From Taxawa tesnikishii (nom. ined.) (Eukaryota; Ascomycota; Dothideomycetes; Dothideales): a DNA stretch of 64,000 bases. Positions 1 to 61,144 of this stretch are shown here, one piece after another. The stretch is from contig JAPDRO010000007.1 in the NCBI GenBank assembly GCA_030247885.1, forward strand, positions 1,264,101-1,328,100. Reading direction: 5' to 3'. The notes below the pieces were generated by a model that searched no databases, was not told the origin of the DNA, and saw nothing but the letters and a program-made list of their open reading frames with translations. The position numbers were made by a program, and so were the translations under genes. Position 1 is the first letter of the stretch, and the number at the start of each line of letters is the position of its first letter.

Positions 1-3000
1 ACCAAGCCAAGTTCGAGCAGCTGTTCAAGTCGGCAGTAGGCAATGACCAAGCACTTTCGGGCGACAAGGCCAAGGATCTGCTCCTGCGCTCCAAGCTCCC
101 AGGCGATGCTTTGTCGCAAATATGGTAGGCATTTCATGGTCTAGAACACGAGCATCGCTGAACTGGCATAGGACACTCTCAGACACCACAAAGTCCGGCC
201 AATTGCTCTTCCCCGAGTTTGCCTTATCTATGTACCTATGCAACCTCAAACTCTCGGGCAAGGACCTACCACCTAGCTTGCCAGAAAGAGTCAGGAACGA
301 GGTATCGAGCATGGTTGACATTATATCTTTTGGCGTACCTGATGACCGCACACAAGAACCAGCGCGGACCAACGCGCCCAACTTCAACGAGCCTGCACGC
401 CAGAGCACTCCCGTAATCCAACAGCCGCAACCACAAGCCTCCAACAGTCAGCTTCTCTCACAACTCACTGCACAGCCTACGGGGTATGGCTTCCAGTCCC
501 AACCTACGGGTCTGCAACCGCAACCTACTGGTTTCCAGAGCATGCCACAGGCTACAGGATACAACGGACCGAGGCCTCCCATGCCACCAATGCCGACAGG
601 TTTTGGACAAGGCTTGTCTCCCCAACCGACTGGCTTTGCAGCCGCTCCCTGAACGCACAGCCTACTGGGCGCCCTGGACAATGGGGCCTCGTCAACGCTC
701 CGGCTTCTGGTCTGCCGAACCTGCATGCTCTGCAGCAGCAGATGATGCCTCAGCCAGGACGTGAAGCTGGTTTCACTACCACTGGCCTTCGCGGCAATGC
801 TACCGTTCCTTGGGCTGTCACGAAAGACGAGAAGAAGATCTACGACGAGATGTTCAAGGCTTGGGATGGGTTTGGCAAGGGTTTCATCACAGGCAACCAG
901 GCGATTGAGATCTTTGGACAGAGCGGGCTTGATAAACCTGATCTGGAGCGCATCTGGACCCTGTCTGATCCGCACAACAAGGGCAGACTGAACTTGGACG
1001 AATTTGCGGTTGCCATGCATCTGATTTACCGCAGACTGAACGGATACCCTGTCCCTGCTCAGCTCCCCCGAGCTTGTTCCGCCGTCAACCAGGAACCTGA
1101 CCGATTCGATCGGAACCATGAAATCGCTTCTCTCGGAAGATGCGCAAGCGAGAAAGAGCAGCGGTGCCTTCCTGCAACCACAGAAGACGGGTGTGAGCTA
1201 CCTCAAGAATCATTCTTTCCGAAGTGGAGGCAACGGTCCCGGAGCAGGTCGCAAGGATGCCACCGTTTTCAAGAACAACGACGACGACTTCGGATACCGC
1301 TCTAGTGCGCGTCGGCGAATGGGCGCCGATGGTCGTTCGCCTTCTCCTGCGCAGCCGGCTTCTCCCGTGTCTGAGCGGTCCGCTGATGAAATGAGTATTG
1401 ATCAATTGAAGAAGGCAATTCGCGAAAAGAAAGTTCTGCTCGATGCAATGGATTTCCAGGATGAGAACGAGGCCGACCAAGAAGATGCGCTGGATATCAA
1501 AGACCGACGGGACGCTGATGACCTCTTCCGGCGCATCAGGCGCATCCAGGAGGACATCGACGGTCATCCAAACTCTGGATTCCGGACAGGCGATTCGGAT
1601 GCGGAGCGTAGAGCCATGCGCAGGCAGCTGCAGGGCCTTAGCGATCGTCTGCCCGAGTTGGCGTCCCACGTCCGACGCTGCGAAAGAGCCATCGCCGACG
1701 CCCAACTCGAGCTCTTCAGACTTAAGGATGCTAAAGCCCATCCAAATGCTGCTCCAAGCATCGTCGGTACTGGCCCTGGTGGCGCCGTCACCGAGTCTGA
1801 TCGCCTCAAGGCTCGTGCCAAGGCGATGATGCAGCAACGCTCAGCTGCCTTGACCGGAAGGCCGGCTCCCTCGACCGGGGGTGACGACGGTAGCGCAGCT
1901 GCTAAACGACTTGAGGAAGAAAACACTCGTGTCCGAAAGGAGCGCGAAGACAACGAGCGCATGGTTCGTGATGTCGAGGAAAGTGTCACTGAGTACAGCA
2001 AGAGCCTCGAGCAAGGCCTCAAGGAGGGCGCTGAAGATGCCACTACCGAGCATGAGCGCAGGAGATGGGAAGACGGTCTTGGTGTCGAGGATGAGGTCAA
2101 GGATTTTATCTTCGACCTCCAGAGAAGCAGCAGGGCTGCCAAGATTAGGAAGGAAGAGTGAGTGACAGATTATCACTGGCTGTATGTCTCTTCTTGCTGA
2201 CGAACACTAGGGGTGACCGCCCAAGGGACCGAACTGCATCCACACGCGCCGACGACACCAGTCGTACAAGCAGTACGTCTCGCTATGAGAGTCCCGCTCG
2301 AACAGACACAACCCGCAGCGCTGTGTCTCCAGCCACGACTGGCACATCTTACTCGTCTTACAAGACTGCTGAGGACCGTGCTGCCTTCATCAAACAACAA
2401 GCCGAAGCAAGAATGGCCGAACGTCTTGCTGCGCTTGGTCTTAGAGCGCCAACCAAAGCCGGTGAAACTGCGCAGCAAAGACAAGAACGCGAACGCAAGG
2501 AGCGGGAAGACCGCCTTAGGCAGGCGGAAGAGGAGGACTCCCGGCGAGAAAAAGAAAGGCAGCAAAGACTTGCAGGGGAGCAGATTGCACCCCCATCGGC
2601 GGCGAAGCCGGCAGCCAAGAAGCCTCCCCACCTCCATCTAGAAAGGGTGGAGCAGACTCGCTACAGAAGGACCAGGAACAGCAGGCGCAAGCGGAGGCCA
2701 GACGGGTCGACCACAGCATTGCTGAGCAAGCGCTCAAAGAACAGCAACAGGCCCAGGCTGCCGAGACGAGGGACCTTGAGTAAGTTTAGAAGATCTCCAC
2801 ATGTAGCAATGTCTATTCTAACGCCACCTACAGGGACGAAGAGCGCCGTCAAGAGGAAGAGATCAGGAGACAACAGGAAGAAGCGCAGGCCAATCTTCGT
2901 GCGCTCGAGGAACAAGTACGTCAGGGCAAACTCAAGAAAGCAGAGGAGAAGGCTAGAAAGCAGGCTGCCCAGCGGGAAACGAAGGAAAGAGAAGCTCGCC

Positions 3001-3930
3001 TTGCCGCACAGCGTGCAGAGGTCGAGGCAGCCAAGGAAAAGGAGCGTCAACTGAGGCTTCAGCTGGAGAGCCTTGACGATGAGGACTCATCTGATGAGGA
3101 GAACCCACAAGAGGTTACTCCGCAGGAGAACACTCCAACCGCAAGCCAGGAGCTCCCAAGGGACGCCCCGGCCGAGGCTGCTATTCCCTTGCCACCTCCG
3201 ACCCCAGCAGAACCAGCTGCTGCACCCTCCGTCGCCAGCCCGCCTGCGCAGTCGAACAATCCCTTCTTCAGGAGCATGGGTCAGCCTGCTCCCACTTCTT
3301 CAGTCACGTCGCCTGCTCCTGCGCCTGCGGACACCAACCCCTTCCACCGTATGACCCAGCAGGACACGGCCAAGACCACGCTCCCAGAGCCAGCTGCACC
3401 ATCAGCTCGCCGTACTGCGAAACCCGCCGAAGACGACGACTGGTCCGTCGTCGAAGACACATCATCCGACGAGGACGACGATGATGGCCGCCCCACCGGC
3501 GGCAGCGCCAAACAACTTGCCTCCATTCTCTTCGGCACCATGGCGCCTCCGCGCCCATTGTCCAGCATGGATAACGCCAACGCATCCCCAGCACCCGGTT
3601 CACCCGCCCCACCATCTGCTGGCGGCATCTCTTCTCCCCTCCAGCTCCTCCAGCTCCGCCTATGCCGACCGGTGGGGCTCCGCCACCGCCACCAATGCCC
3701 AGCGGTAGCGCCCTCCACCTCCTCCTATGCCTACCGGCGGCGCGCCACCGCCGCCTCCCATGCCGAGCGGTGGCGCTCCTCCTCCGCCGCCTATGCCTGC
3801 GCTGGGTGGCGGTGCGGGTAGTGCGCCGGACAGGTCTGGGCTGTTGCAGCAGATTCAAGCGGGCAAGGGGCTCAGGAAGACGGCGACAAAGGATAGGAGT
3901 CAGGCTGCTACTGCGGGACGGGTGTTGTAG
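1..3930 (+). CDS. PAN1: PAN1-like actin cytoskeleton regulatory protein (5' partial, several frameshifts)
   Basis: Endocytic scaffold that couples clathrin adaptors to Arp2/3 actin assembly. The window opens inside the first visible EH domain; a second EH domain follows at about 830-1050 ([18 protein letters not shown]). Next come a charged coiled coil (about 1390-2160, 2380-3060), a proline-rich tract ([11 protein letters not shown] repeats, 3660-3800) and a terminal WH2-like segment ([14 protein letters not shown]). Between the EH domains lies a QPTG repeat tract; LTAQPTG and LNAQPTG fit the LxxQxTG motif phosphorylated by Ark/Prk kinases in yeast Pan1. Introns: 125-171, 2158-2210, 2780-2833. 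The frame breaks five times, at C runs 647-649, 1065-1069, 2626-2629, 3636-3639 and 3711-3713; one extra C at each restores a continuous protein. The identity is firm. Whether the frameshifts are real cannot be settled here. Confidence 0.93.
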
Positions 3931-5212: not shown

Positions 5213-5301
5213 GCTGTCTCCTTGTTGGAAGGATGTATGACTGGGTGGTGCAAGGGCTGTGAGAGCAGAGTAGTCGGTCAGAGGCAGACGAGTGAGAGAA
5301 G

Positions 5302-5720: not shown

Positions 5721-8206
5721 ATGGCTCACCGTGAGCAAGCTCCTTACCGGGCACAGGATGTCCACGAGATCTCGGAGATGCTCCGCGGCTTGGAGGCTCA
5801 CCAGAAGAAAAAGGGCGGCAAAGGCGGCTTCTCCTGCAAAAAGGCGACGTTTTCAATTGCAGGCACTGACACAACTGTCGATTCGTGGCGCATGCAGGAC
5901 TGGGACTACAAGAAGCCCAATCTCCCAACTTACGCGAGAGGTCTCTTCACCACCAAGAACTCCAAGGAAATCCCGAGATCGTTGTTCGTGGATACGACAA
6001 GTTCTTCAACCACGGTGAGGTCAGAAAGACCGAATGGCGCAATGTCGAGCAGAACACGAGAGGTCCCTACGAACTCAGCGTGAAGGAGAACGGTTGCATC
6101 ATCTTCATCTCTGGTCTCGAGGACGGGACGCTACTGGTGTGCAGCAAGCATTCGACCGGTGCCCGTGAGGACGCCGAAACGAGCCATGCTATTGCCGGAG
6201 AGCGCTGGGTTGACAAGCACCTTGCCACTGTCGGCAAGAACCGAAAGGATCTGGCTCTCAAGCTGCGAGAGATGAACGCTACAGCCGTTGCAGAACTCTG
6301 CGATGATGAGTTTGAGGAGCACGTCCTTGCCTACAACCCGGAGACGGCAGGTCTGTATCTTCATGGCATCAACCTCAACCTCCCCGAATTTGTCACTTAC
6401 CCTGGTCACCTCGTGGATCGCTTTGCCACCGAGTGGGGTTTCAAGAAGACCATGTATGTCATGGAGGATGACATCAAGAAGGTCAAGTCGTTCCTTGACA
6501 AGGTCGCCGAGACTGGCAACTACGCTGGCAGAGACACGGAGGGCTTTGTCATCCGTTGCCAGGCCAGGGAGACTGCGGACAGCCCATGGGAGGATTGGTT
6601 CTTCAAGTACAAGTTCGAGGAGCCCTATCTCATGTACAGACAATGGCGCGAGTGCACAAAGGCCGTCATAGCTGGACGTCCGCCCAAGTACAAGAAACAC
6701 AAGGATATCACCGAGCAGTATCTCCTCTACGCACGGAAGCGGCTACATGCGGATCCATCGCTTGGCAAGGCTTACAATCAGAATCACGGCATCATCAAGA
6801 TGAGAGACGACTTCCTTGCTGAGCGCGGCTTGAAGGGTTCCGATATCATCAAGCAGGAGATTGAGCGTGGCGAAGTCAGCGGATCTGCCATCACCAAGGA
6901 TGTTGTCATTGCCACAGTCGCGACCATTGGGTGTGGCAAGACCACTGTTGCGCTTGCACTTGCGAAGCTCTTCAACTGGGGCCACATCCAGAACGATAAC
7001 ATTCAAGGCAAAGGACGACCTGCACGGTTCGCTCAGTTGGTCTGCGACACTCTTCTGAAACACCCAGTCACGATTGCGGACCGAAACAACCATCAACGTC
7101 GTGAGCGTAAGCAACTCATTGAAGACGTTCAGAAGGTTATTCCTCAGGCCCACTTTATCGCTCTTCATTACGTACATGAAGGTCCCAACTACGATCAGAT
7201 CCGCGAGAAGACGCGTGAGCGTGTCCTTGGCCGCGGCGACAACCACCAAACCATTCAAGCCGGCTCGAAAGGCCAGGGCGAGATTATCGAGATCATGGAA
7301 GGTTTCATGCACCGCTTCGAACCTGTCAACCCAGAGAGCGATCCAGACGATGGCTTTGACCTAGTGATTGACCTGGATCCGACCGCTTCCTCGCGCGAGA
7401 ATCTCGAGACTGTCCTTGCTCAGCTGAATTCAGAGTTTCCACGTCTGTTCGGCAAGATGCCTACTGGCGAGGACCTTGACAACGCCATTGAAGCTGCGCT
7501 GAACGATTACAAGCCGGACATCCACCACGAGGTGGGCGGTAAGGGCGGAAGCAAGCAGAATGCCAGACGCCAGCACCAGCAGCAGCGCCGCATGGACGAT
7601 CAGCAAAACGGCGTCATGGGCAACACAGTCCATGCCAATGGCACCAACGGCGCTCAAGCGAAGCCCAAGGAGCGCAAGATCGAGTACTTTGGTGTTACCC
7701 TCCCCGCCGCACGTATCAACGCCATCCTGGACGCCGTGTTCCGCGATCAAGATGCAAACACGGCACGCATGTACCGGCAACTGCAGCAGCAGCGGCGCAT
7801 CCAGTCAGAATTCCACGTCACGCTCATGCACCGGGCCTCCGCGTCGCAGAACCAGGAGTACTGGAACCACCTGTCGGACCTGCACGCCGCCGCGTCGGAC
7901 GGCCAGTCCGACACTGAAGTCGGGAAGTGCAAGGTCATGCTTGAGCGCCTAGTCTGGGACAACAGGCTCATGTGCATCGTGGCGCGCCTCGCGCCGGCCG
8001 AGGAAGGGAAGGAGTGGCGCACGGTGAACGACACGGCGCACGTCACGGTAGGCACGGCAGATCAGAGTGTTAAGCCGAAGGAGAGTAATGATTTGCTGAA
8101 GAGGTGGTTGAAGGAGGGCAGTCAGGGAAGTGGAATTCAGGAGCTGGCGATCAGGGGCCATGTCGAGCTGACAGGCACGGTTAAGGGCATGGTGCAGAAG
8201 CATTGA
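5721..8206 (+). CDS. TRL1: tRNA ligase, trifunctional (one frameshift)
   Basis: Joins tRNA half-molecules after intron removal, and splices HAC1-type mRNA in the unfolded protein response. The three enzyme domains appear in order. The N-terminal adenylyltransferase carries the active-site lysine in VKENGCIIF (about residue 120). The central polynucleotide kinase has a P-loop, ATIGCGKTT (about residue 395). The C-terminal cyclic phosphodiesterase has two H-x-T motifs, FHVTLMHR and AHVTVGT. The start at 5721 (MAHREQAPYRAQDV) gives about 829 residues, the usual fungal length. The frame breaks once near 5966 at a short G run (aaggaaat); one added G gives the expected continuous reading through STKN-SKGNPEIVVRGYDKF. 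Intronless. Confidence 0.95.
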
Positions 8207-12614: not shown

Positions 12615-12658
12615 CGCAAGTGCAAAGACCCGATCCATCGCAAATACCACGAGTCTAC

Positions 12659-16305: not shown

Positions 16306-17877
16306 ATGTCGGCGATACACGAACAGTTCCCTTACCTCAACGGCGATCCCTCCAAGCTTCCTCCAGGCGCCGACCCCTTCACCATCACTACACGGACCGG
16401 ATATCTACCGTCTCAGCTTCCGCTCAAGAAGTTGCCACCCGCGTTCAATGCTCTGAGCGACATCCTCGACGATATGCCTATCCTCAAAGAGGACGGCACT
16501 GCAGGGCTACTTGCTACCTTCAAACTTGGTCCTCTCATTGACTCAGGTGCCCTCCCTGACCTGACCGCCGAGATCAACACCCTGGTCGTTTCCGGTAGCG
16601 AGGAGGTCGACATGTCTGCGGTCGCCGCAGCGTTCCGTGATTACAGCTTCGTGGCTTCCTCCTACCTCCTGGAACCGTGCTGGGAGATGTACAGTGTAAA
16701 CCCAGGAAATGGGTACGGGCTCGGCCGTCAGAAGTTGCCGAAGTGCATCGCTGGCCCACTGGTCAAATGTGCAAAGATGTGAGTCGTGCCGCCTCATGTG
16801 TGTTGCTCCGTTAGGGATGCTGATCGACGAATAGTCTTGACATCCCTGCATTCATGTCCTACGCCTACTCCTATGCGCTCTACAACTACTACCTTGTTGA
16901 TCCCGCAAAGGGTCACGATGACTATGCCAACCTGCGTCTGATCCGCGCCTTCGAAAAGGGACTGGACCCCAAGTCCTCCGAAGCCGGATTCATCCTCACG
17001 CACATCCACATGGTCGCACAGACCGGCGGACTCATCAAAGGAACCACCGGCCTCCTTTCCGCCATCTCCGAGTCCGCTTCAAACTCATCTCTCGACCGCA
17101 TCGCCGCCGCCAAAGCCAGCTTGGTGTGCATGCTCTCCTCCATGTCCGTCATCGAAGCCAACATGGAAAAAATGTGGACGCACTCCTTGCCTAAGGAGTA
17201 CATGACCTATCGCACTTTCATCTACGGCATCACGTCACAATCCATGTTCCCCGACGGCGTCATCTACGAGGGCCAATACGACAACCTCCCGCAATTCTTC
17301 CGCGGCGAGTCCGGCGCCAACGACGCCATCATCCCCTCCTCGACCACCTCTGCGAGATCCCCATGCCGGCGAACCCACTCACGGATATCCTGGTCGAATT
17401 CAGAGAATACAGACCCAAGCCGCATCGCGAATTCCTCGCATTTGTTAGGGAGACGAGCAAGAGCATCGGCGTGCGCCAGTTCCTCACAAACTCTGGCGAC
17501 CTGAGTCTCGCGGTCCTGTATCTTAGGATCCTGGATCATGTCAGGAGCTTCAGGTGGCGCCACTGGATGTTTACGCGTGAGTACATCATCAAGCGCACAC
17601 GTCACCCGACGGCTACAGGGGCAGTCCTATTATCACCTGGTTGCCAAATCAGCTCAGCGCGGTTATGGATATGATGGAGGATGTGTGCAAGGGCTCGGGG
17701 TTGTGGGCCATCTTGGAGGAGGGCGTGTGGAACGGCGGTGGTGATGCCGCTTCCCCATCGTCAGCCTTGACTAAGGAGGAGTATGAAACTGTCAAGGAGA
17801 TGATGGAGAATGCGGTGAGCCAGAGGGAGAAGCTGCGCAAGGAGGTGGCGAAGTATTGCCAGGATAGGGGCATCTGA
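16306..17877 (+). CDS. Indoleamine 2,3-dioxygenase (two frameshifts)
   Basis: Heme enzyme that opens the indole ring of L-tryptophan to N-formylkynurenine, the first step of the kynurenine/NAD route. Exons are 16306-16778 and 16835-17877 (56-nt intron), about 505 residues. Family signatures: LLEPCWEMYSVNP, YRTFIYGITSQSMFP, FRGESGAND, YRPKPHREFL and FRWRHWMFTREYI. The histidine of RWRHW aligns with the proximal heme ligand. The frame breaks near 17333-17339 (C/T run in atcccctcct) and at G run 17618-17621. One added base at each gives the expected conserved sequence, including the final PNQLSAVMDMMED block. Filamentous fungi usually carry several IDO paralogues; I cannot say which this is. Confidence 0.93.
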
Positions 17878-18545: not shown

Positions 18546-19938
18546 ATGGCACCCCCAACGCCCCACGACCTAAACTGCCTCACCATCGACGAACTTCAGA
18601 AGCTCGCCGCCCCGCGCATGGACAAGCAGACCCGAGACTACTACAATGAAGGTGCCGACTCCGGATCTACGGTCCTCGAAAACATCACTGCGTACAACAA
18701 ATACCGGATCCGACCTCGCGTGCTCCGAGACGTCTCCCGCATCGACACCTCCGTCTCCGTGCTCGGGCAGAAGAACAGCATACCGCTAGGCGTCGCACCG
18801 ACCGCCATGCAGTGTCTTGCGCACGAGGACGGCGAGCTGGCGACAGCTAGGGCGTGCAAGAAGGCTGGCGTAGTCATGGGCTTGAGCAGTTTCTCAACCA
18901 GCAGCTTGGAGGACGTGGCCAAGGAGAGCGGGGACAACGCACACGCGCTGCAACTCTACCTGTTCGAAGAGCGCGAGCACAGCCGGAAACTGATCGCGCG
19001 CGCGAAGAAGGCCGGGTACAAGGCCGTGTTCCTGACCGTCGATACGCCCCTGCTGGGCCGCAGGAATCTGGAGATCAGGAACCAGTTCAAGCTGCCGAAG
19101 CACTTTCGCGTTGCCAACTTCGTTGAAGAGGAGGAAGTGCCGTCGAAGGGCGAGGAGGGCGGCGAGGAGGGCGTGGAGGGGAGAAGAAAGAGATGGATCG
19201 GCCGGCGATGAAGCGTACCACCAGCGCAGCAGGTTACATGGATGGTGAGAAGCGTGTGCCTCCTTCGGGGCCCATAACTTTCCACTCGCACGCCGCGAAC
19301 CCGACGTTGTGTTGGGAGCGCGACATTGACTGGCTGAAGCAAGAGTGTGGACCCGAGATGCAGGTCTGGGTCAAGGGGATTGCAACAGCAGAAGATGCGC
19401 TGTTGGCCGTGCATCACGGTGTTGATGGGATTGTGGTGTCGAACCACGGTGGACGACAACTAAGTACGCGCAGTCACCCTCTCCTCTCCTCTCCTCTCCT
19501 CTCCTACCCCGCAAGCCTCTCAGTTACCGCTTATCCATCTCCTCCCTCCTTTGATCTTCTTGCACAGGCATGTCGACATGACGAGAGTGCAACAAGTGCT
19601 AACACTTCCCTGCAGACGGTGCCCTCGCAACCCTAGACGCGCTCCCCGAAGTCGCCGCCGCCGTGCAGAAGAAGATCCCTGTGCACGTCGACGGGGGCAT
19701 CCGGCACGGAACCGACGTTTTCAAAGCGCTGGCTCTGGGTGCAGATTTCGTCTGGATCGGTCGTCCCGTCCTCTGGGGACTCGCCTACAAGGGCCAGGAG
19801 GGCGTCGAGCTGTGTCTGCGGCTGCTCGCGGATGAGATACGCCTTTGCATGGGTCTGGCGGGCGTTGTGAAGGTTGAGGACATCTCAAAGGATTATTTGG
19901 TCAAGATGGACCGCAGTGGGTTCGTTAGTAAGTTGTAG
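18546..19938 (+). CDS. FMN-dependent 2-hydroxyacid (lactate/glycolate-type) dehydrogenase
   Basis: Oxidises an L-2-hydroxyacid to the 2-oxoacid through FMN. Exons are 18546-19463 and 19616-19938, about 413 residues. Motifs: a substrate/FMN loop near residues 75-90 (GVAPTAMQCLAHEDGE), FLTVDTPLLGRR, WVKGI (flavin-contacting Lys), VSNHGGRQL (catalytic His with substrate Arg) and VDGGIRHGTDVFKALALGA. There is no cytochrome b5 domain, so it is not the mitochondrial CYB2 type. The 152-nt intron carries a CTCCT microsatellite. The frame breaks at G run 19178-19181, in a variable Glu/Gly-rich loop; one G restores it. Substrate is not certain. Confidence 0.9.
19478..19505. repeat. CTCCT microsatellite inside the dehydrogenase intron
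   Basis: Five tandem copies of CTCCT near the 5' end of the intron. Confidence 0.85.
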
Positions 19939-23688: not shown

Positions 23689-26378
23689 CTACCAATGCCT
23701 GACAACATAAAGCACGCCTTCGCCTTCCAACCCCTTCAACAAAGCAGCAACTTTCTTCTTCTTCCAGCCCTCCCTGGCCGCAATCTCCTCCAACGCCCGC
23801 TTGCCATCGAGATACTTCAGCAACAAGCTCCAGTGCTCCCGTAGCTCCTGGTCCTCGAATCCTTTGCCCACTTCTGCCAGCCAGCGGCTCTCTTCCTCAT
23901 TGGCCTCGTGCGGCGATAGAACGACGCTCTGCTCGAACGCCGCAGTGAGATTCGCGTTGCCGGCGCCGTTCGGTTGAGGATCCAGCCCCGGCCCGTTGTG
24001 GAGCACGGAGATGGCGTCGTCGTCGACTGCTCCTCCTGCGTTTGCTGCACCAGTGCTCGCACCGTTCAGCGGCATGGACGGCGGACTCGACGGCCCCGCA
24101 TTGTCGACCGCGCTCAGCGGGGACGGGCGCAGCGCGGGACTGGGCGCGGTCAGCGGAATGGCTGTGCGCCCCGAACTCGCGCTTCCGGCATCGCTCGACG
24201 GCTTCGGCGGCGGTGGGCTCAGCAGACCCGTCAACCTGGGGCTCGCGATGACGGAGGATTTCCTTCGTCCGCTGCTGGCGTCGCTGGCGTTGTCGTTTCC
24301 GCCGATGGCAATCTCGTCGCTGCCGGCTGCGAGGCTGCGGCGGACGGAAGCCGCGGGCGCGGCATCGCTGCCTACGCTGCCTTTCTCTCTGCGCTGAGCC
24401 CCGCGCGCTAGTTTGACTTTCTCGCGTTTCATGTCGGCCGCGCAGCGCGCGATGTCTGGCGCCACTTTGACCCAGGCGAATGTGCGAAGTTGCGTCACCC
24501 AGCCGCCGCGGAGCAGCCAGGCGAGCATGTCGAGGTAGACTTGCTTGTGGTCGTGACTCGGGATGTGGCGGCCGTAGGGACGGGGCTCACCGGACAATAA
24601 CTGCAGCATCTTGGGGAGGGAGGGAGAGCGCTGAAGGATCGGCCGAATGCGGGGATCGCTTGGGCGAGCTGGCGCATGTCGGCGTTGGGGGAGACGATGT
24701 AGGTGTCGCGGATGTGAAGGGGAGGGATGGCACGGGCGCGACGCCAGTAAATGAGGTGCCGGGCTAGGAACTGCATGTCGGAGAGGGAGAGTTGGATCCG
24801 CAAGGAGAGTTTCTGGAGGGACTTTGTGGGCTTGATTTCCCGGATGAAGTAGGCAAGCGGTCCTGCTAGCTCTTTAGCATCCGATTCGATCTCCTTGAGT
24901 AAGGTCTCCTTGTCTTCGAGGAGCAGAAGGGCGGCGTGCGGCGACAGAGCTGTGTCCGACTCATCGTCCACGATCATCGAGGCGGTCGTTAACCACAAAC
25001 CCGGCATCTGTGGCTCGCACGGAGTTGGAACATAAGGTGTGGAGATTGCCTGGGGGATCTGCAAAGACGTGTTGAAGGAAGAATTAACGTCGACATGAGC
25101 GATCTTGGACGCGGATATGCTGGTGTATACCGTAGCCAGAGACTTTGCTAGCAGCGATTCGGTGATGATCTTTGGCCAGAGAACGGACATCGGAGTTTCT
25201 GCGACCACTCAGTCAGAAACACGCCACCCTTGCTTCACCACTCGAAGATCAACATACTGTTCTCTTTGCCCTGGGATACCATGGCCAATATTTGCTTCGC
25301 CTGCTTCCATACGTATCCGGATCTGGCTTGCTCATACTTGAGTGCTTTGGAAAGTTTTTGACCACGTTGTCGTACATCTCCTGGATCCTGATATGGTACT
25401 CCAACGCGGGTGGGTTCATGACAAAAACGACGTTGAACATGGTCATCTCCTCGGCGTCATTACTCGATGCACTTTTCGCCTCAGAGTTGACTTCGGATAT
25501 GCCGCCTTGCGAGCTGTAACTCTGCGAGACGGGATTGGGGTCGAGCATTGCATCCAGGCTCATGATGTTTGTTCCCTTCGCCTCCGGCTCATCTTTCTGC
25601 GGCTGTGTGCTTGGGCTTTCCGTGACGTCCTCGTGCAAGATAGTCTCCTCGTGCATGCCGTTCTCTCCCCCTCTTCCTCTCCCTCGCCATCACTATCATT
25701 ACCTTCCCTATCTCCCTTCTTCCACCTCCTCTTCCTCCACCTCCCATCCTCTCTCACAAAAACCGGATAGCCAAGAAACACCATATCATCCAACTGGACC
25801 TCGAACCTTTTCTTCGCCAAGCCCCTAGGCGGACAGAGCCATTTCTCGAGCCCTTCCACAGAATACCCCAACACGCGTTCCCACTCAGGCCTCTCCTCCT
25901 CTTTCGCCCTACCATCAGGGTCCCCTTCGTTCCCACTCCCACTCCGCTCCCGCCCTGAACCACTCAGGTCAAGCACGGAAGAAGCCAACAGCTCATCCTC
26001 CTCCTCTTCCTCATCCTCTGGCCCATCTTCCCTCAGCGTCTGCGTCGTCACAGTTCCCGTACTCCTCCCTTTGCTGGCCGCCGTAATCGCCGTCCTGATC
26101 GTGCCAGCATCTGTCCTTGCGCCAGTGCTTCCCCTACTCCCGATGGCAGTGACGTTCTGACCGGATCTTGTGTCTGACGAGAGGACCGTGCCCGTTTCGG
26201 TGCTCGAGTCAGAATCAGTGTCTGAGTCGGAGGTGTGCGAGTGCCAGGCGCTGGAGGGAGGATCCGGCACCGGAGATGATGGGTAGTGGAAGACGGAACG
26301 TGGGCCGCTGCGCGTGCGGATGACAAGTAGTAGAGCGACCAAAGAGGGGTTAGGTGGGAGGGTGGGTACTGTAGGCAT
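23689..26378 (-). CDS. NPR3: Nitrogen permease regulator 3 homologue (three frameshifts)
   Basis: Subunit of the SEACIT/GATOR1 complex that restrains TORC1 when amino acids are short. Exons 26378-25258 and 25198-23689 (59-nt intron) give about 877 residues. The N-terminus (LVALLLVIRTRSGPRSVFHY) is the Npr3 longin-type start, followed by an acidic Ser-rich insert. The middle (LQKLSLRIQLSLSDMQFLAR, HLIYWRRARAIPPLH) and the C-terminal winged-helix block (YLDGKRALEEIAAREGWKKK) are also Npr3-like. Frameshifts lie at the C run 25667-25671, the T run 25355-25359 and within 24611-24630; one added base at each rejoins the conserved blocks. It converges on an amino-acid permease gene. Confidence 0.9.
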
Positions 26379-40885: not shown

Positions 40886-41600
40886 TTATGGTGCATGCAC
40901 CGGCTTGTCGTCTACGTATTCCTCTTCCCGTATTCCGTCCTTCGTGACCACCTTCACCATGACGCCCTTGAAGTCAATCGGCAACCTCCTCTTCAGCTCA
41001 TCCGTGCACATTCTCAGAATCTTCATTCCCTGCTCGAAGCTGATGTCCGGGTGGTGATGCTTGTCGAGGATGGATAAGCAGTAGTACTGCGCGTATCCGT
41101 GCGCGGCGTATGGGAGAGGAGCGGCGGATGCCAGGTAATCGATCCAGTAGAGCGTAGGCTTGTCGTGTACGGAGTCGTAGCCGCCGAGAAGCAGGTTGAC
41201 GTTGTAGGGCTTGCGCGAGCGAAGGGCCTTGGCGAGCTCATTTCTTACGAAAGATGCCACAGCGGAGGGGCAAGATCAGTCCCGTTCCGCATGCTGTCCA
41301 GTTGTACGTTGGCCTGCACGTATTCTGCGAATTGAACTAGACGACGCCGTCAGCGTTGGTGTCACAGGTTGGCACATGGGTGTCAGTACCGGTGTCTCCA
41401 GCTTCGCCGCTGAAAGCCATGAGATTGTGCTTGTTCAGTTGTCGCGTCTTGTCATCCGAAGCCTTGAGGATGGTCGCGCCGCGCATGACAGCCTTGGATG
41501 CAGCGATAATGGTAAAGTCTTTGCCTTTGATTCCGAGAAGCACCTCCCTGCGTTCCAGGTCAGTGTTGAACATACAAGTAGGCTAAGAGTTTGCTCACAT
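40886..41600 (-). CDS. PRE1: Proteasome subunit beta type-4, start codon split by intron (one frameshift)
   Basis: Non-catalytic beta-ring subunit of the 20S proteasome. Exons 41600-41599, 41547-41390 and 41336-40886, about 203 residues (yeast Pre1 has 198). The first coding exon holds only AT of the ATG; the G comes from exon 2 after a 51-nt intron (GTGAGC...CGCAG). Exon 2 then reads EVLLGIKGKDFTIIAASKA, the family's N-terminus, which begins directly at Met. Other blocks: NLMAFSGEAGDTVQFAEYVQ, NVNLLLGGYD and LYWIDYLASAAPLPYAAHGY. The frame breaks at 41267-41270; one extra G (C in the gene) gives DLAPSAVASFVRNE. Divergent with UTP13. Confidence 0.93.
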
Positions 41601-41978: not shown

Positions 41979-44910
41979 ATGGCCTACAAGGCCGAGTTTA
42001 AGACCACCTTCGAACCAAGCAAAATTATACAGCCCATCTATACCGGCGGCAGTGTCGCGCTCAGCCAAGACGGTAGAGTGCTTGCGGCATGTGTGGGCGA
42101 GGATGTGCTGCTGAGCGACCTATCGACCGGCGCACATCTCGCCAGAATCGAGGGCGTAAGTAGCTGGCGCATCCGTACGTCTGGTTGCAAGACTGACGGG
42201 TTGACAAAGTACGCAGGATGGCGAAGCTATAACCATCTTAGCACTGGCACCTGACGCATCCTTTGTGACACTATGTTCCCGATCGCTTTCTATGCGCATA
42301 TTCGCGCTCAGCCCCTCGGAAGACGCCATTGAGACCCAGCTGGTCCGGAGTCTCAAACCTCATACAGCGCCTGTCGTTACCGCGACTGTCGATTCGACGG
42401 GGACCTTACTGGCCACTGGAGGAGCAGATGGAGTCGTCAAGGTTTGGGATGTTCGGGAGGCTACGCGACGCATACTTTCCACGGACACAGTGGCGTCATA
42501 TCAGCGCTGCACTTTTTCCAGGTAGAGATATCAGCCTCCGACCCCAAGCACAAGAGCCGGAAGCGCAAGAGCAGGAGCGGCAGCGAAGACACAATAGACG
42601 GACTTCCTACGGAGACAACCGTTGGCTTCCGTCTTGCTTCAGGTGGTGAAGATGGAAGAATCAGGGTATGGGATCTCCACAAGAGCAAGAGCATCGCGGT
42701 GCTTGAGTCGCACGTGTCAGTTGTACGGAGCCTGGATTTTTCAAGCGAACAGAACGTGCTGTTGTCGGCCAGCCGGGACAAGACAGCAATTGCTTGGGAT
42801 GCGAAGAGCTGGCAGGTCAGGAGCACTGTTCCTGTTCTGGAGGAGCTCGAGAGCGCGGGTTTTGTCGCAAACGGAGAATACTTCTACACCGGCGGAGAAA
42901 CTGCGCGGATAAGAATATGGGATCTGGGCGGCAACGAAAGGACACGGGAGCAAGAAGCTGGTGTGGAGACTGAAGCAATTCTAGACGTTCTTCACTATCC
43001 GAGCCTTTCCTTCCTTCTGTCTGTTCATGCAGATCAGACGCTGGTCTTGCACTCACTGGGCCCCCTTGATGAAGGCTTAGAGGCTGGTGTGTTATCTCCT
43101 TTGCCGGTCATGCGTCGTATCTCTGGTACACACGACGAGGTTATCGACCTTGCATATGTTGGAACCGACAAATCTCTTCTGGCACTGGCGACCAACCTCG
43201 AAGACATTCGACTCATCAGCCTGGACTCTGCGGAGGGCGCGACCGAAGATGCCACAAGAGCTCCCTACTTTGGCGCGGACGTCGGTCTGCTGAAAGGACA
43301 TACGGACATTGTCATTACTCTCGACACCGACTGGTCAGGTCACTGGCTGGCTACGGGCGCGAAAGACAATAATGCGAAACTGTGGCGGTTGGATCCCGCC
43401 AACTCATCTTATACATGTTATGCTACCTTCACAGGACATGCAGAGTCTATCAGCGCGGTTGCTCTTCCCCATGCTATTCCTACGGCTGGCTCGCAAGCGT
43501 ACAACAAACCACTGGAGCATCCCCCGCCTTCCTCCTAACAGGCAGTCAGGACAAGACCATCAAGCGCTGGGATGTCAGCGCACGCAGAGGCGATGTTGCC
43601 AGTTCGGAGGCTAAATCAGTCCGGGCGACGTATACTCGGAAAGCGCACGAGAAGGACATTAACGCTCTGGATACGTCATACTCTTCAACATCCACTTTGT
43701 TCGCGTCCGCCTCGCAAGATCGGACAGTAAAGATTTGGGATCTCGAGTCCGGAGAATCCATCGGTGTGCTGCGCGGGCACAAGCGAGGCGTGTGGTCCGT
43801 CGCTTTCGCCCCCGTCTATACCTACCATCTCAGGCGAAAGCGGCGCGAGCAGCGGCAACCGAGGCATGGCGGTCACTGGCAGCGGAGACAAGACGGTACG
43901 AATCTGGAGCCTGAACGACTACAGTTGTCTACGCACGTTTGAAGGACACACCAACAGCGTGTTGAAGGTGCTGTGGCTGCCTATACCCAAAGACGCCGAC
44001 AAGAAACGCAACACCAGAGGCGTTCAGGTCGCCAGTGCTGCAGGCGATGGCCTCGTTAAGATATGGGATGCGCAGAGCGGTGAATGTGCGGCTACACTCG
44101 ACAATCACATCGATCGTGTCTGGGCCCTTGCAGTGAAGCCCCCAGTGCCTGCGCTCCAGCGACGCAGGATCCAGGACACAGATGCCATGGAGGATGACGA
44201 GGAGAGCGAGGCAGAATCGCAACTCGAACTCGTGTCCGGCTCCGCTGACTCAACCCTCACTTTCTGGAAAGACACGACACTTCTCACATCCGAGCAGTCC
44301 GCATCCCGGGCCACGGCACGCGTGGAGCAGGATCAAGAACTCCAGAATCACATCCACGCGCAAAACTACCGGGAAGCCATTGTCCTAGCACTGCAGCTGA
44401 ACCATCCGAAACGACTACTAGACCTCTTCACCCGCGTGCTGGACTCGCAGGAGAAGGACGAGGAAGCCTTACGGGCAAGACAGGCGTGGATGAAGTCCTG
44501 GGTAGCTTGGCCGACGAACAGCTCTGGCGACTTATGCTGCGACTGCGAGACTGGAATGCCAATGCACGCACTGCAAGAGTGGCGCAGAGAGTCATGTTTG
44601 CTCTTTTCCGACTTTATCCCAAAGAGAAGTTCGTGCAATTTCGCAAACGGAGGGGAGAAAGGAGGAGCAGCAGCAGGCGGAGGGCATGCTGCCTGCTGAA
44701 GGTGGGAGGAACACTGGCAGGAACGAAAATGTCAAGGATGTCCTTGACGGCTTGAAGGCGTATACTGATAAACACTATGTGCGGTTGGAGAAGATGGCTG
44801 AGGAGCGCTGGGTGCTGCTGTGGACGCTGCAGCAGATGTACGAGACGGCTGGTGATGGCCTGGACGGGCTGGAGGGTGTTAGTGAGGGTTTCATGGCTAA
44901 CGGAGCGTAA
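41979..44910 (+). CDS. UTP13: U3 snoRNP WD40 protein UTP13 (five frameshifts)
   Basis: Component of the small-subunit processome needed for 18S rRNA maturation in the nucleolus. Exons 41979-42155 and 42217-44910, about 957 residues. Tandem WD40 repeats run from about residue 25 to 690: LLATGGADGVVKVWDVR, LASGGEDGRIRVWDLH, FLLTGSQDKTIKRWDV, SASQDRTVKIWDLESG and VTGSGDKTVRIWSL. The C-terminal Utp13 domain follows (EAIVLALQLNHPKRLLDLF, LADEQLWRLMLRLRDW, VKDVLDGLKAYTDKHYVRLE). Frame breaks: G run 42455-42457, C run 43521-43525, C run 43809-43813 (here one base too many), about 44471-44480, and 44648-44649. Together they restore a length divisible by three and a continuous propeller. Confidence 0.94.
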
Positions 44911-45751: not shown

Positions 45752-47428
<1,677 letters not shown>

Positions 47429-50052: not shown

Positions 50053-51744
50053 TCATGGTGTGGTGTTGTATACTGCGCCCGGAAGATGACAAGCTCCTTC
50101 AACAAGATCGCCATCAATGATTTGCACGGTCCGACCGTCAGCGCCGAATCGAGCGAGGCTTCCGCCGCCAGTCTGCCAGACGTTGTAAGCGGGCCACCCA
50201 TTCGCTGGCAGCGACTTCGGGTCGCTGATGAAGTCGTAGAAGTATTGCTGCATCTGCAACGACGTCTGGACCTCTAGATCGGTGACGACTCCTGGTGCAA
50301 TGACGTAAGTCCCAAACAACATGTACAAGTCCGAGTAGTGGTATGCACCCAACCAGGGAACGGGAGCGATGTTGCTGAAATTTCCGGCCCACTCATAACG
50401 GTAGGTGAGGAGGCCGATATCGTTGCGATACAAGCTTGTATTATGAGCAGGGCAAACGAACCCAAGTGTTATGCTGACCACTGTCTGTTCTGAAGGACCG
50501 GCAGGATTGTACGGAGCGAGTGGGGAGCCTTCTCGTGCTGTCGTGCCGATGATCTCTGGAACCTTCGCAATCTTACCGTCAAAGAATCGTTCAGTGTAAT
50601 TCGAAAAGACGTATGTGTTGTCGACTGTCTCTGTTAGCTCTAGTGTCTTTCCTGTCCACAAGCAGCCTCATACCTTGATGTGTGAACTTTATCGCAGGTT
50701 GCGAAGTATTGACCAGCGTCGAATTGTCTTGGTACTGCCCGACAAAGTTTTCAATACGCTGCATCGGTACATGACGCATGCATTCAAGCTCGAACTTGGG
50801 GTCACTGAAGTCACATCCCAGTGACTTTGCGACAAAGGTGAAGTTTGTACCCGCGGAGTCGAAATCGGTTTCACCGAGGACGTCACTTGCAAGCGCAGTA
50901 CCCGAACTGGCAATGGCGGCGTGGATGATAGGATCTTCGTAATATGCGAAGAGGTACATGTCTGCAGCGATAGCTCCTGCGGATTGTCCCCAGAGAGTGA
51001 TCCTTGACGCATCGCCGCCAAAAGCTGCGATGTTTTCCGCAACCCACTCAACAGCCATACGTTGATCTTGGAGCCCGAAGTTGTCGCTGCCATTCAAGCC
51101 ACGGGCATGGGGATATGCAAAGATATTCACGCGGTAGTTCGTGGTGACTACGATGTGCTTCTGCGAATTGTGTACCCAGTTGGCTGGTAATTGTGTTGGA
51201 ATGTTGATGCCGCCAGTAACGTCGCCTCCACCGGTGAGGTATACGATGACAGGCAGCTTCGAGTCTGGCGTGGCGTCCGCAGGCGTCCAAACAGCAAGAG
51301 TCAAACAGTCCTCGGCAGAGTTCCATGCCACATCACCAGCCAGTAAGCTCTCGCCGTAGTTGACGATCATGTTGCCCGTTATATTGAGCGCCCAAGCAGA
51401 AGGGACGGATGAAACGTATTGCGGACACGCTGGGCCAAAGACAGTGGATTCGTAGGTCTCAGAAGAGTTGTCAAGACGCTCTGGTGGCGCCCATCGTAGG
51501 GGGCCCACTGGAGGCTGCAATGATGATGAGAGACCTGATACAAAATCGAAGCAAGTACACATACCTTCGCGTATGGGACGTACTTGAACTGACGCACGTC
51601 CGGATATGTGTCATTCAAATCCCCAATGAAGGTGCCGGTACGAGTATGTATTGTCAAGTTGACGGGCGTCACTCCAGCGTAGCTGGTGCCTCCTACCAAG
51701 GCAAAGCTTGCAACGCCGAAAAGGATGGATGAGACTTTGTACAT
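50053..51744 (-). CDS. Secreted type-B carboxylesterase
   Basis: Alpha/beta-hydrolase of the cholinesterase/lipase type B family. Exons 51744-51565, 51514-50674 and 50624-50053 give 530 residues with an intact frame. A signal peptide starts MYKVSSILFGVASFALVGG. Then come the N-terminal block FKYVPYAKPPVGPLRW, the EDCLTLAVW segment, a GGG oxyanion region (VIVYLTGGGDVTGG), the nucleophile elbow ITLWGQSAGA and a His-containing YHYSDLYMLFGTY block. Many NxT/S sites fit secretion. The natural ester substrate cannot be deduced. Confidence 0.9.
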
Positions 51745-52424
51745 ATCGACGAGCCACTGGCACAGTAGTTGGGTTGCAGATAACTCCTCCCGCCCACTCT
51801 GATATGCTGCGTGAGAAGTTGAGTACCACGTTAATGACCGCTCTAAGCAAAGAGAGAGAAAGAGATAAAGAAAGAGGGTCACCGTACATCGTAGCATGGA
51901 TGCTGGACTATATACTATCGTACGACTTGGTACCCCTTGCCGACGTCGCGGGGTAGCAGCAGTGCATACCAAGGGAGCAATAGGATCGTCCGAAGACCGG
52001 TGACGCACATCGTCCATACCAGCAGGTTCTCGTGAATGCACTGTGCCGCAAGCGCAAGTTTGCGCGGCGTTTTGGCCGACGCGGCACGATCAAGATGTGT
52101 TTCCGTAACATAGCCTTTGAACAGCTTCTAAGGACAATCAAGAGCATAGGTCACACTGCTCAGCATAGAACCTTCAACTCCGTCACTTCTGGCGCTGGTC
52201 CAATCCAGAAATGCGAGTTCGTCTCTAGAGCGGGGCTTCGTAGTATCCCGGATTAGCGAAGACCGAAGTGCAGTGCATCACAGGCATGCACCGTATGGCG
52301 CCTCGTGCGGAGTAGGAAACTAATAGTCGGAAAATATACGCCGGTCACTTAGGGCTGCGAAATATATAGTAATAAACTAGAGTGACAAGTCAATTCTCCT
52401 GGTTGTAGCTCGCTTAAATTCCTA
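51745..52424. other. Intergenic region upstream of the carboxylesterase
   Basis: No gene is supported. Sequence becomes AT-richer towards the MITE. Confidence 0.5.
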
Positions 52425-52426
52425 TA

Positions 52427-52575
52427 ACGTAAACCGCGGGAAGCCGACCAGGTGGGGAAGCCGACCATTTAACTCACATAGGCAGTTACGAGCGAAGTAA
52501 GACTTCTTCGCTAGCTCTTTTCAAGTCAGACTAAACTTTATTGAGGCTACTGGTCGGCTTCCCCGCGGTTTACGT
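52427..52575. mobile_element. Tc1/mariner-type (pogo-like) MITE, 149 bp
   Basis: Terminal inverted repeats of 24/25 bp start ACGTAAACCGCGGG and end at GAAGCCGACCA; the right copy is 52551-52575 in reverse complement. Both ends are flanked by TA (52425-52426 and 52576-52577), the target-site duplication of Tc1/mariner elements. A third GGGGAAGCCGACCA copy lies just inside the left end (52454-52467), and the centre contains a small hairpin (AGCGAAG...CTTCTTCGCT). There is no coding capacity. The arms differ by one G in the G run. Confidence 0.85.
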
Positions 52576-52577
52576 TA

Positions 52578-52910
52578 TTAGAATAAGATATGAATATGTT
52601 AGTCCATATGAATATTTTAGAAAGAATACATAAATCTTTATGTAAGGATGACTCTGCTCGTCCTACAAATTGAATTCATTACTTTACGCCTCTATGTCTA
52701 ATGGTGAGCTTGGGCCGCTCTTAGAGCGTAGCCGGTATTATACTAAATGTCCGTTAAACGAGAACTTCTGAACTTTCAAGTTGAATTCGACGGTAGACTA
52801 TAGTGGGACAAGCTTGAATCCGGGTATCTAACGCCACTAAGCCGCCGTTCTATGTTCTCTTCATCTCTTTCTGTCGGGGAGGAAGTGGACTATCGGCACA
52901 AGCGTGATGT
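52578..52910. other. AT-rich intergenic DNA between MITE and MFS gene
   Basis: 333 bases with no supported gene. Confidence 0.5.
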
Positions 52911-57029: not shown

Positions 57030-57122
57030 CACGAGATATAGGATTTAGGACCAAGGTTATCTGCAATACTTAAGAATGAAGTGATTAAGCTATACGGGGC
57101 TCTGATAAGCTTACGGACTTAC

Positions 57123-58128: not shown

Positions 58129-58491
58129 TCACGCTAGGGGTATCTGTAGAACACAACAGACGCGCCGAACGTGATTATGTATTCGCAGGAGGCGGTCGGC
58201 TTCTCCACCTGGTTGACTTTCCCGCAGTCTACGTTACCGGTGTTCCCATAACTCCTCCACAGTCGATCTTCGCTCTTTACCCCGTAAGCACGTCTGAGAG
58301 AAGTACAGAAATCCCCAGCCACGACGTTTCCTCACTCTGCCATTCAAATAGGATGCTGTCGATCTGGTGGGCGAGCATCTTCCTTGGGAACACGCTCTGA
58401 TTGCACGGTTCCGCCGTCCTATATGAAGTAGATGTGCGCAGCTCTCGTACTATCTGATATCCTGCTTTTCCTTCCGCTGTCTTTTGTAAAG

Positions 58492-58963
58492 ATGAACACA
58501 TCCAAGCACGAACAGGACCTGTCGGTCGACCGGTTGTCGAATCTCGAAATTGGTATTGCCGTTGAAGAATGCAAAAACTTCTTGGACAATCACTTTGTTC
58601 TGCGACCACTTCGTAGTAAAGACCCTAACGACCCCTTGAATTGGCCAGCGATTGAGAAATACGCGACGTATCTGAGTGTCTGCATATTCGCATTCCTCGC
58701 GACAACCAACGCTAGCAACCTCATCCCGGCCGTTGTGCCTCTCACCAAAGCTTTTCACAAAGACTTAACTGGGACTGGCCATCTCGTCTGCTTCAAAGGC
58801 TCTTTCTTGACGTTGGAAGCCTTGTGTAGCTTTCGCGTTTTTGGCATCTTGACAAAAGGCCCACATGTGTGATCGCCCTCGTAGTGTTATGTGCGAGCAA
58901 CGTCTGGAGCCTTAAAGCAAAGACATGTAACTCACTCCTAGCTTCGCGGATGGTCTCATAACT
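58492..58963 (+). pseudogene. N-terminal fragment of an MFS transporter
   Basis: The ATG at 58492 opens MNTSKHEQDLSVDRLSNLE and DPNDPLNWPAIEKYATYLSV, then helices CIFAFLATTNASNLIPAVVP and CFKGSFLTLE. In a shifted frame follow CVIALVVLCASNVWSL and SLLASRMVS, the third and fourth segments of fungal DHA1-type transporters. The similarity stops at a TAA (58961-58963) where the 3' end of the ferric reductase gene begins. At least eight helices are missing, so this is a truncated gene. Confidence 0.75.
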
Positions 58964-61144
58964 ACAACGAGAAAGCATCGACTTCCAATTCGAATATCGT
59001 CTTTCCTGCTCTTCCGTGTGCGCTCACTTTGGCGCGAACGACGTCACACATTTCTGCCGGTCCACAGACGACAACGCCAACTTTGCCATACCCAGCCTGC
59101 GCTTCACTCTTCAGAAGCGCATCTATGTCCAAGCGCTCTCCAACTACTACTTGCTTGTCTGCCACCCCCTAGCGCGACATCCATCTCCTCCACCAGCGCT
59201 TCCGAGCCCGACGAGACGCTCCAGGCCAGTCTTATATTTGGATGTGCATGAATCCAGCCTAAAAGGCCGGTGATACCAACACCGCCACCGATCAAGATGA
59301 TACGGTCAGATTCCATTACATCTCTTGAAGACTGATTTGCATAAGGGCCATCGACTAATGTCAACATCCGATCATGCGACTTCAATTGTTTCGTGACACC
59401 CGTGTTCTTCTTGATGACAAGGGTCAGACCATTTCCCCCAGCCGGGAGTTCGAGAGAAGCGTTGGCCGCAGCGAGATGGGCCACGCCAGTTGTCGGGACC
59501 TTGCTCATTGGCTTGATGTCGCCTCGAGCGTCGTCCGATGAACACAGATTCTGCGATGACGCAGATCCGTGCGTAGGAAGTAGCTCATGCTTGTAGTTGT
59601 GGAACAAGGCCATCGAGTTTGCAGAAAACGGATGGTTCTCCCACGGTCTCATAGGGGTGAGCATTGGGAAATGCACATACACCACATGGCCCGGCTTGCT
59701 GGCCCACCGGATCCCTGGGATGTCAACGCGCACATAACCAGAGCCGATCTCCTGACGGTGGCATGACGAATCCCGTTTTTGGCAACGCGGATGAACCGTA
59801 ACAGGCGGTCGAAAAACCAAACCGCACAGGCGGCGAATAACCAGTCGGTATAGAAATTCATTCCCCACATCAAGACGACATGATACCAACAACCAACGAT
59901 GACAAGGATCGAGAGGACGATGTGCAGGGCGAGGAAGACTTCGTACGAGCGGCGACGGAACCTCAGATGGCTGAGAACAAGCATGGCGCACGTGAGCACA
60001 GTAGCAACAATGCCCCACAGCCAGTAGGCTTTCTTGGACTCGACTAGATAACTGCCTGTTCCCTGATAGGTGAGTAGCAAGGTGATACTGTGAACGATGG
60101 CCTGCACGGCAAAGATGCGGGCTACCCAACGATGCAGAACAATGAAGGTCGAGTGTGACCAGTTGGTTACCCAGAGAAGGAAGTTGTTCCGGCCTGAGAA
60201 AAGGATCAATAGGGGAAGAAGGGCATAAGCAATGTGGCCAGTGCGATAGCCTATATACGCCAACCTCTCCTCTTTAGGTGGAAAGCCCCAGGGGTGAGGC
60301 TGCTGACTCCTATAGTTGACAGCACTGAGGACAAGATTGAGGAAGAAGAACATGGCTATGTAAAGTGCTTGACCGATTGTTGGAGCGTTCCCTGAGAGCC
60401 ATGGTAAAGGGCGTATATGGTAGGTGCCGAAGACGGAAGGATAGACCAAATACGGCTTTGCCTTGCCTATAGCAGCTGACAGGAGGCTCAGGCGGGCAAG
60501 GAGAGTGAACAAAATGGGCGTGCCGAAGCCGACTGTGACAAGAACGAAGCTGCCCAAGATTCATCAGTCATTGAGAGGGAGAGTCTTGGGGGCGCTACTC
60601 CTCACCAGTATCGAGCCTGGAGCGATTCTATGTAGTCGAACATGATGTTGAATTTGTATTGCTCGTCATAATTTGCTTCTGGCACCAGCATGGTCTGATT
60701 CATGGGCGTTGTCGAGCTTGAATTGTACTCGACCGACGGGGTTCCCTTGATCCTCTCAAGGGCTTCCAGATAGTACCATTTTGGCGCGAGGGAGGAATCA
60801 CCCGTGACCTGGGAAGCCCAGAACCTCTCCCTCTGCCAGGTGGGCACAGCAGCTGGATCGCAGTGGGCATTGATGCAGTAAGCCAGGGTCGTCAAGTAGG
60901 CGGTGTTGCTGGCAAGGCACTCTGGTGACGTGGTTGCCGACACGGACATGGACATGCCAGACAGGGTTTCTGCCGTAGTTGTACACGACAGTGTCGCACC
61001 GGAGATGGCATTGCTACACGCGAAAGCGCAAGCCGGATCATACCAGAGGAAGCCATAGCCTGGGAACTTCAGGGACACCAAATGCGCAACGGAGAGACGC
61101 AGAAGGCGGGAGACAAGGACGAGGAGGGCTGACGGCAGCTTCAT
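58962..61144 (-). CDS. Ferric/cupric reductase, FRE family (two compensating frameshifts)
   Basis: Plasma-membrane metalloreductase moving electrons from NADPH through FAD and heme b to extracellular Fe3+/Cu2+. Exons 61144-60606 and 60549-58962, about 708 residues. A signal peptide starts MKLPSALLVLVSRLL; a Cys-containing extracellular domain follows (CAFACSNAISGATLSC). The ferric-reductase core has heme histidines in GYRTGHIAYALLP, VLHRWVARIFAVQAIVH and ALHIVLSILVIVGCWYH. The FAD motif is NHPFS; NADPH motifs are ILIGGGVGITGLL and VVVCGPAEM. The frame breaks at 59751-59752 (one base missing) and 59165-59169 (one base too many), which cancel out. Its 3' end abuts the truncated MFS gene. Confidence 0.91.

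What the first reader, a model, noticed from the sequence alone, without database searches (positions are those of the whole stretch)
1..61144. Window-wide single-base losses in homopolymers break about 15 genes
About 30 frameshifts were located in PAN1, TRL1, IDO, the hydroxyacid dehydrogenase, NPR3, DNA2, bZIP, BTB, PRE1, UTP13, GH30, CHAT-like, MFS and FRE genes. Almost all are repaired by adding one base to a run of identical bases, mostly C or G; two (43809-43813 and 59165-59169) need one base removed. Essential genes such as PRE1, DNA2 and UTP13 cannot all be dead, so a homopolymer-biased sequencing error is the simplest reading. The two MITE arms differ by one G in the same way.
Basis: partly seen in the sequence, partly recalled or inferred. 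Interest (0 to 1): 0.7.

Follow-up and report, generated by a model that had tools for sequence, protein, structure and literature searches.

The report
Nanopore-type homopolymer errors, assembly-wide
The broken genes in this stretch of a fungal genome are most likely not broken in the organism: the assembly miscounts runs of identical letters, above all C and G, in every part that was sampled, so the finding is an ordinary sequencing artefact.

Summary
The frame breaks are in the sequence as given, but they are not special to this window and most likely not biological. The window is the last 64 kb of a contig in a 29.37-Mb, 34-contig assembly. A frameshift model with no prior on runs finds missing-base breaks in 14.3% of coding G/C runs of five, 4.5% of fours, 0.32% of threes; 32 rotated controls reached at most 2.6% for fives and 0.84% for fours. 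The window and 19 other loci behave alike. Run lengths fall sharply after five, inside and outside genes: G/C runs of six number 2 in the window and 1 in 200 kb of controls, 747 genome-wide. Solved-structure relatives place breaks in PRE1 and UTP13 to within a few codons; neither has a second copy here. This fits published nanopore errors (passages). No raw reads were available.

The parts
41246..41275 (-). PRE1 (proteasome beta-4): frame switch at a run of four, downstream of a 53-nt intron (41337-41389)
   Evidence: yeast beta-4 residues 2-53, 54-75 and 75-192 match three frames in turn: the first change is the intron, the second is at the run; posterior (where the cluster 41246-41352 sums to 1.66)
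42451..42510 (+). UTP13 frame switch a; no run of four or more inside
   Evidence: Chaetomium Utp13 (5oql_J) residues 103-140 in one frame, ending at 42453, and 141 onwards in another, starting at 42453; posterior 0.82; runs
43491..43526 (+). UTP13 frame switch b at C5 (43521)
   Evidence: 5oql_J residues 506-508 reached in both frames, 1 nt apart; posterior 0.86
43800..43837 (+). UTP13 frame switch c at C5 (43809); extra-base class, better read as two bases lost
   Evidence: 5oql_J residue 595 reached in both frames, about 2 nt apart; no gap against the homologue if two were lost (by eye); posterior 0.74
44454..44489 (+). UTP13 frame switch d; no run of four or more inside
   Evidence: Pfam Utp13 positions 42-47 in two frames, about 5 nt apart; three-frame view; found only by the class-rate model, posterior 0.60
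44622..44663 (+). UTP13: possible further switch near G4 (44652), unresolved
   Evidence: posterior 0.57; Pfam Utp13 position 103 in two frames about 83 nt apart, so an intron or insertion is possible
24613..24663 (-). NPR3 frame switch; interval holds two runs of four
   Evidence: Pfam NPR3 positions 394-399 in two frames, about 1 nt apart; posterior 0.94; runs
33177..33218 (+). DNA2 helicase frame switch; interval holds C5 (33178)
   Evidence: Pfam AAA_12 positions 131 and 137 in two frames with 23 nt more than expected, too short for an intron; posterior 0.92 at 33186-33212, which lies just beside the C5
614..3806 (+). PAN1: switch intervals 614-652 (C4), 1042-1077 (C5, extra-base class), 2581-2601 (C5) and 3723-3806 (no run of four, extra-base class)
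   Evidence: posteriors 0.85, 0.92, 0.87, 0.67; EH, WH2 and DUF1720 matches in three frames, though two introns are also predicted
5907..5990 (+). TRL1 N-terminal frame switch, no run of four inside; the three TRL1 domains after it are all in one frame
   Evidence: posterior 0.79; Pfam
17328..17629 (+). IDO-like gene: switches 17328-17366 (C4) and 17588-17629 (G4)
   Evidence: posterior 0.95 and 0.92; weak IDO domain pieces in two frames
19170..19193 (+). FMN-dependent dehydrogenase: switch at G4 (19178)
   Evidence: posterior 0.95; domain pieces in different frames, about 77 nt apart, so Pfam alone does not exclude an intron
25337..25677 (-). NPR3 N-terminal half: switches 25337-25366 (T5) and 25660-25677 (C5)
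   Evidence: posterior 0.91 and 0.93
31594..31632 (+). DNA2 middle: switch, two A4 runs inside
   Evidence: posterior 0.92
50623..50655 (-). Carboxylesterase-like gene: extra-base-class switch, no run of four inside
   Evidence: posterior 0.89; COesterase pieces in two frames
52418..52584 (.).

Best explanation
The window belongs to a long-read assembly (most likely Oxford Nanopore with an R9-type pore and little or no short-read polishing) whose consensus under-counts runs of identical bases. Shown: breaks depend on run length and base, are nearly all losses at runs of three or more, occur elsewhere in the assembly at similar rates, and go with a scarcity of G/C runs longer than five inside and outside genes. 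Inferred: the platform, and that in the organism the runs are longer and the genes open. Arithmetic on the counts suggests that a true run of five C/G is read as four about a quarter of the time, that most true sixes are read as five, and that A/T fives and sixes are under-read about 5% and 17% of the time. A run of seven read as five loses two bases and mimics one extra base.
For: Missing-base breaks per coding run (window plus 19 loci of 10 kb): G/C five 9.75 of 68 (14.3%), four 18.75 of 415 (4.5%), three 6.34 of 1955 (0.32%), two 6.37 of 8700 (0.07%); A/T five 1.69 of 68 (2.5%), four 3.53 of 331 (1.1%). At G/C runs of three to five, 34.8 losses against 2.7 gains. 32 class-rotated nulls: best log-likelihood 4401.2 against 4419.0 observed; G/C five at most 2.6%, four at most 0.84%. 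Window alone 8.9% and 2.2%, the 19 controls alone 11.9% and 3.9% (all). G/C runs of 3, 4, 5, 6: 1035, 215, 41, 2 in the window and 3173, 669, 110, 1 in 20 control loci; a first-order Markov model of the window expects about 19 of six or more. Genome-wide exact G/C sixes 747 and sevens 136, A/T sixes 3839 and sevens 1229. G/C runs of 4, 5, 6 in predicted genes 384, 67, 2 and elsewhere 494, 84, 1. The PRE1 piece matches only itself in the assembly; the UTP13 piece matches itself plus 20 weak matches at 22-38% identity; the proteasome search's 24 matches fall into 14 places by my grouping, the number of 20S core subunits (recalled). Passages read: R9.4.1 reads under-estimate homopolymer length and A/T runs are read better than C/G (PMC8486125); in nanopore-only assemblies of a fungus fewer than one-sixth of 305 conserved genes were at first predicted full length, mostly because of homopolymer errors (PMC7500977).
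Against: No raw reads, RNA-seq or platform record could be seen. No other fungal genome was at hand as a yardstick, so the drop after five is judged against a Markov model, extrapolation and non-genic sequence of the same assembly. The model also puts about 27 missing-base and 20 extra-base events on single G/C bases: noise of the model or another kind of error. 5 of the 18 window clusters hold no run of four, and UTP13 sites a and d, though confirmed by homologues, hold none. A/T fours do not exceed the rotated nulls (1.1% against a maximum of 1.7%). G tracts up to 22 long exist, which a plain cap at five does not predict, although over-long calls are also described for nanopore reads.
Confidence: 0.96

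Rival explanations
1. The strain is a real mismatch-repair-defective mutator (or its genes are decaying) and has lost bases at runs by replication slippage.
For: Slippage loss also rises with run length (recalled); losses dominate here.
Against: PRE1 and UTP13 have no second copy here and are essential in yeast (recalled); UTP13 alone has four confirmed breaks. A slippage mutator would not be expected to leave G/C fives abundant while sixes nearly vanish, in and out of genes alike.
Confidence: 0.015
2. The genes are expressed through programmed ribosomal frameshifting or polymerase slippage at the runs.
For: Both sides of the breaks are conserved protein.
Against: The sites are short runs of different bases, or no run at all, in unrelated housekeeping genes; the slippage cases I recall use long A/T runs.
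Confidence: 0.005
3. The splits are ordinary introns misread as frameshifts.
For: True for some: offsets of 59 nt in NPR3, 152 in FMN_dh and about 62 and 65 in the amino acid permease, and one intron in PRE1.
Against: At six confirmed sites homologous positions in the two frames lie about 1 (UTP13 a), 1 (UTP13 b), 2 (UTP13 c), 5 (UTP13 d), 1 (NPR3) and 23 (DNA2) nt apart, below the 46-nt shortest intron that the model allows (a setting of mine).
Confidence: 0.01
4. Homopolymer error from another platform (454, Ion Torrent, low-coverage PacBio CLR).
For: These also miscount runs (recalled).
Against: Contigs up to 2.83 Mb suggest long reads; PMC7500977 says PacBio-only fungal assemblies are not hindered by this error; C/G worse than A/T is described for R9.4.1.
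Confidence: 0.06

Closest known systems
Nanopore-only Drechmeria coniospora assemblies (PMC7500977; passages read)
   Same: Fungal genome in long contigs with frameshifts in conserved single-copy genes, put down to homopolymer errors.
   Different: There polishing introduced more insertions than deletions; here losses dominate at runs.
R9.4.1 read error profile (PMC8486125; passages read)
   Same: Deletions grow with run length; A/T runs read better than C/G; some lengths greatly over-estimated.
   Different: That is measured on reads; here consensus error is inferred from the assembly alone.
Gene-fragmenting errors in nanopore bacterial assemblies (Kastor, PMC12007338; passages read)
   Same: Deletion errors most numerous after runs of four to five.
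   Different: A/T errors outnumbered C/G there; here C/G is worse.

Membership tests
Nanopore-type homopolymer consensus error | Break rate rises with run length | tested here: met
   G/C 2, 3, 4, 5: 0.07%, 0.32%, 4.5%, 14.3%, with rotated nulls for four and five
Nanopore-type homopolymer consensus error | Losses outnumber gains | tested here: met
   34.8 to 2.7 at G/C runs of three to five; 40 to 9 of 49 clusters in window plus controls
Nanopore-type homopolymer consensus error | C/G runs worse than A/T | tested here: met
   14.3% v 2.5% at five, 4.5% v 1.1% at four; published trend
Nanopore-type homopolymer consensus error | Found across the assembly, in and out of genes | tested here: met
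   20 control loci and whole-genome counts
Nanopore-type homopolymer consensus error | Raw reads or platform record show it | not testable with these tools
   no reads and no assembly name were available
Pseudogenes or mutator strain | An intact second copy elsewhere, for the essential genes | tested here: not met
   PRE1 and UTP13 only; other genes not tested
Introns | GT-AG gap of intron size between the two frames | tested here: not met
   offsets of about 1 to 23 nt at six confirmed sites; met at other splits

The most novel reading that the evidence does not exclude
The genome really is short of C/G runs longer than five, and its broken frames are read through by slippage or frameshifting at short runs.
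Probability: 0.005. Interest if true: 0.9.

Novelty: not a real feature. Interest (0 to 1): 0.08.

Why it matters
Gene models, pseudogene calls and protein comparisons from this assembly are unsafe until it is polished with accurate reads. The run-length drop plus the break rate by run length is also a check that works from the sequence file alone, without reads.

Tried and rejected
A first gene model on codons alone placed breaks poorly; it was replaced by a position-specific model with forward-backward and EM. The per-run rates printed are three times too high (wrong divisor); one search has the right one. The window-only EM fit put 18.55 losses on single G/C bases, so I rely on the pooled fit and on the interval test. 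The MITE arms as evidence of error were rejected. Two paper searches for the assembly by size (29.37 Mb; 29.4 Mb with 34 contigs) held 0 papers each. Pfam scans of further stretches (not the whole window on both strands) gave no further confirmed breaks. Per-contig counts read from the pattern listings are not safe: the listing lacks some reverse-strand sevens on C1 that one search lists.

One search replaces a comparison that I had first made with yeast residues from memory.

Full report
What was checked. The window is G000:C32:1264101-1328100, the last 64 kb of a 1,328,100-base contig in an assembly of 29,367,862 bases and 34 contigs.

Frame breaks are there. With a coding model trained on the assembly itself and one uniform frameshift rate, 19 clusters in the window have posterior 0.5 or more, 18 of them within predicted genes. 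13 of the 18 intervals hold a run of at least four; random intervals of the same lengths in the same genes average 5.2 and none of 1000 draws reached 13. In the 19 control loci the figures are 24 of 31 against 9.6, again 0 of 1000. A second fit with run-class rates gives 25 clusters in the window. Locus L020, a 23% G+C block, was left out of the coding model but is in the run counts.

Homologues. PRE1: beta-4 residues 2-53, 54-75 and 75-192 match three frames in turn; the first change is a 53-nt intron, the second falls at a run of four. UTP13: Chaetomium Utp13 (5oql_J) residues 103-140, 141-508, 506-600 and 595-791 lie in successive frames; at the joins the frames meet within about 1, 1 and 2 nt, and the Utp13 Pfam domain changes frame again near 44454-44489 with about 5 nt between equal positions. 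NPR3 positions 394-399 appear in two frames about one nt apart. DNA2 AAA_12 changes frame between positions 131 and 137 with 23 nt to spare. These offsets are my arithmetic on the printed coordinates and assume no gap at the very ends of a match. Introns look different: 59 nt in NPR3, 152 in FMN_dh, about 62 and 65 in the amino acid permease.

Dose response. EM with separate rates per base class and run length, started from equal rates, ends with missing-base breaks in 9.75 of 68 coding G/C fives, 18.75 of 415 fours, 6.34 of 1955 threes and 6.37 of 8700 twos; A/T 1.69 of 68, 3.53 of 331, 3.10 of 1383 and 4.39 of 8624. Rotating the run track in each sequence, 32 times, never gave more than 2.6% for G/C fives, 0.84% for G/C fours, or a likelihood above 4401.2 (observed 4419.0). 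For A/T the maxima were 1.7% (four) and 0.7% (five), so A/T fives (2.5%) exceed the null and A/T fours (1.1%) do not. Against a pure run model: about 27 losses and 20 gains fall on single G/C bases (all).

Run-length drop. Window plus 20 control loci give G/C threes, fours and fives of 4208, 884 and 151 in 264 kb (sums), so about 16,800 fives are expected genome-wide (extrapolated). Exact sixes are 747 and sevens 136. The ratio to the next shorter run goes from 0.21 (four) and 0.17 (five) to about 0.04 (six). If it had stayed near 0.2, roughly 2,600 to 3,100 longer runs are missing, some 15 to 19% of the fives, close to the 14% of coding fives found broken. This is arithmetic. A/T runs drop less: sixes 3839, sevens 1229. 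Outside predicted genes the G/C drop (494, 84, 1) is as sharp as inside (384, 67, 2), so selection on reading frames is not its cause.

Single copies. The PRE1 C-terminal piece matches only itself. The UTP13 piece matches itself at 100% and 20 other places at 22 to 38% identity. The proteasome family search gives 24 matches in 14 places by my grouping. Other broken genes were not tested for second copies.

The 'remove one base' sites. At 43809-43813 the switch is of the class of one base gained or two lost. By eye, the stretch aligns to Chaetomium Utp13 without a gap only if two were lost, which a seven read as five would give. At 59165-59169 the same class is seen but no homologue was aligned.

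MITE arms. The element at 52418-52584 has arms with G3 and G4. A 99% identical copy on contig C2 has the same asymmetry in the same orientation. The letters next to the run are alike in both arms, so a context-driven error should hit both; inheritance is likelier. The arm pattern was found 20 times in 17 of the 20 loci: 13 G4 and 7 G3, with L030/L039 and L032/L044 covering the same places.

Literature. Passages of PMC8486125, PMC7500977 and PMC12007338 were read; other papers were seen in listings only. They describe this error type, so nothing here is new.

Verdict. The platform is inferred.

Noticed in passing
62192-64000: Inverted arms (62192-62264, 63928-64000) around a DDE_1 (PF03184) transposase remnant; 62100-64000 has 28% G+C, TpA/ApT 2.02 and (CpA+TpG)/(ApC+GpT) 0.06: a DNA transposon with a strong RIP-like signature. 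The contig ends in its right arm.
   Followed up: partly
52418-52584: MITE-like hairpin with many relatives in the assembly: 61 matches, separate arms included; 10 of the 20 loci returned lie on contig C2, about 4% of the genome (two of the 10 are the same place).
   Followed up: partly
contig C2 (1,163,921 bases), e.g. L021, L030: Besides holding many of those MITEs, C2 shows only 6 G/C sixes in the listing, against 69 for C1 (2.83 Mb) and 22 for C3 (1.03 Mb), and no seven in that. The listings may be incomplete. C2 could be an accessory or compositionally distinct chromosome.
   Followed up: no
L020 (C1:100000-109999): 10 kb at 23% G+C with RIP-like dinucleotide indices (1.79 and 0.03).
   Followed up: no
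G000:C1:2192281-2192302 and other places on C1: In the (incomplete) listing, G tracts of 9 to 22 on C1 outnumber tracts of eight, 14 to 1: a possible second hump that a plain cap at five does not predict.
   Followed up: no
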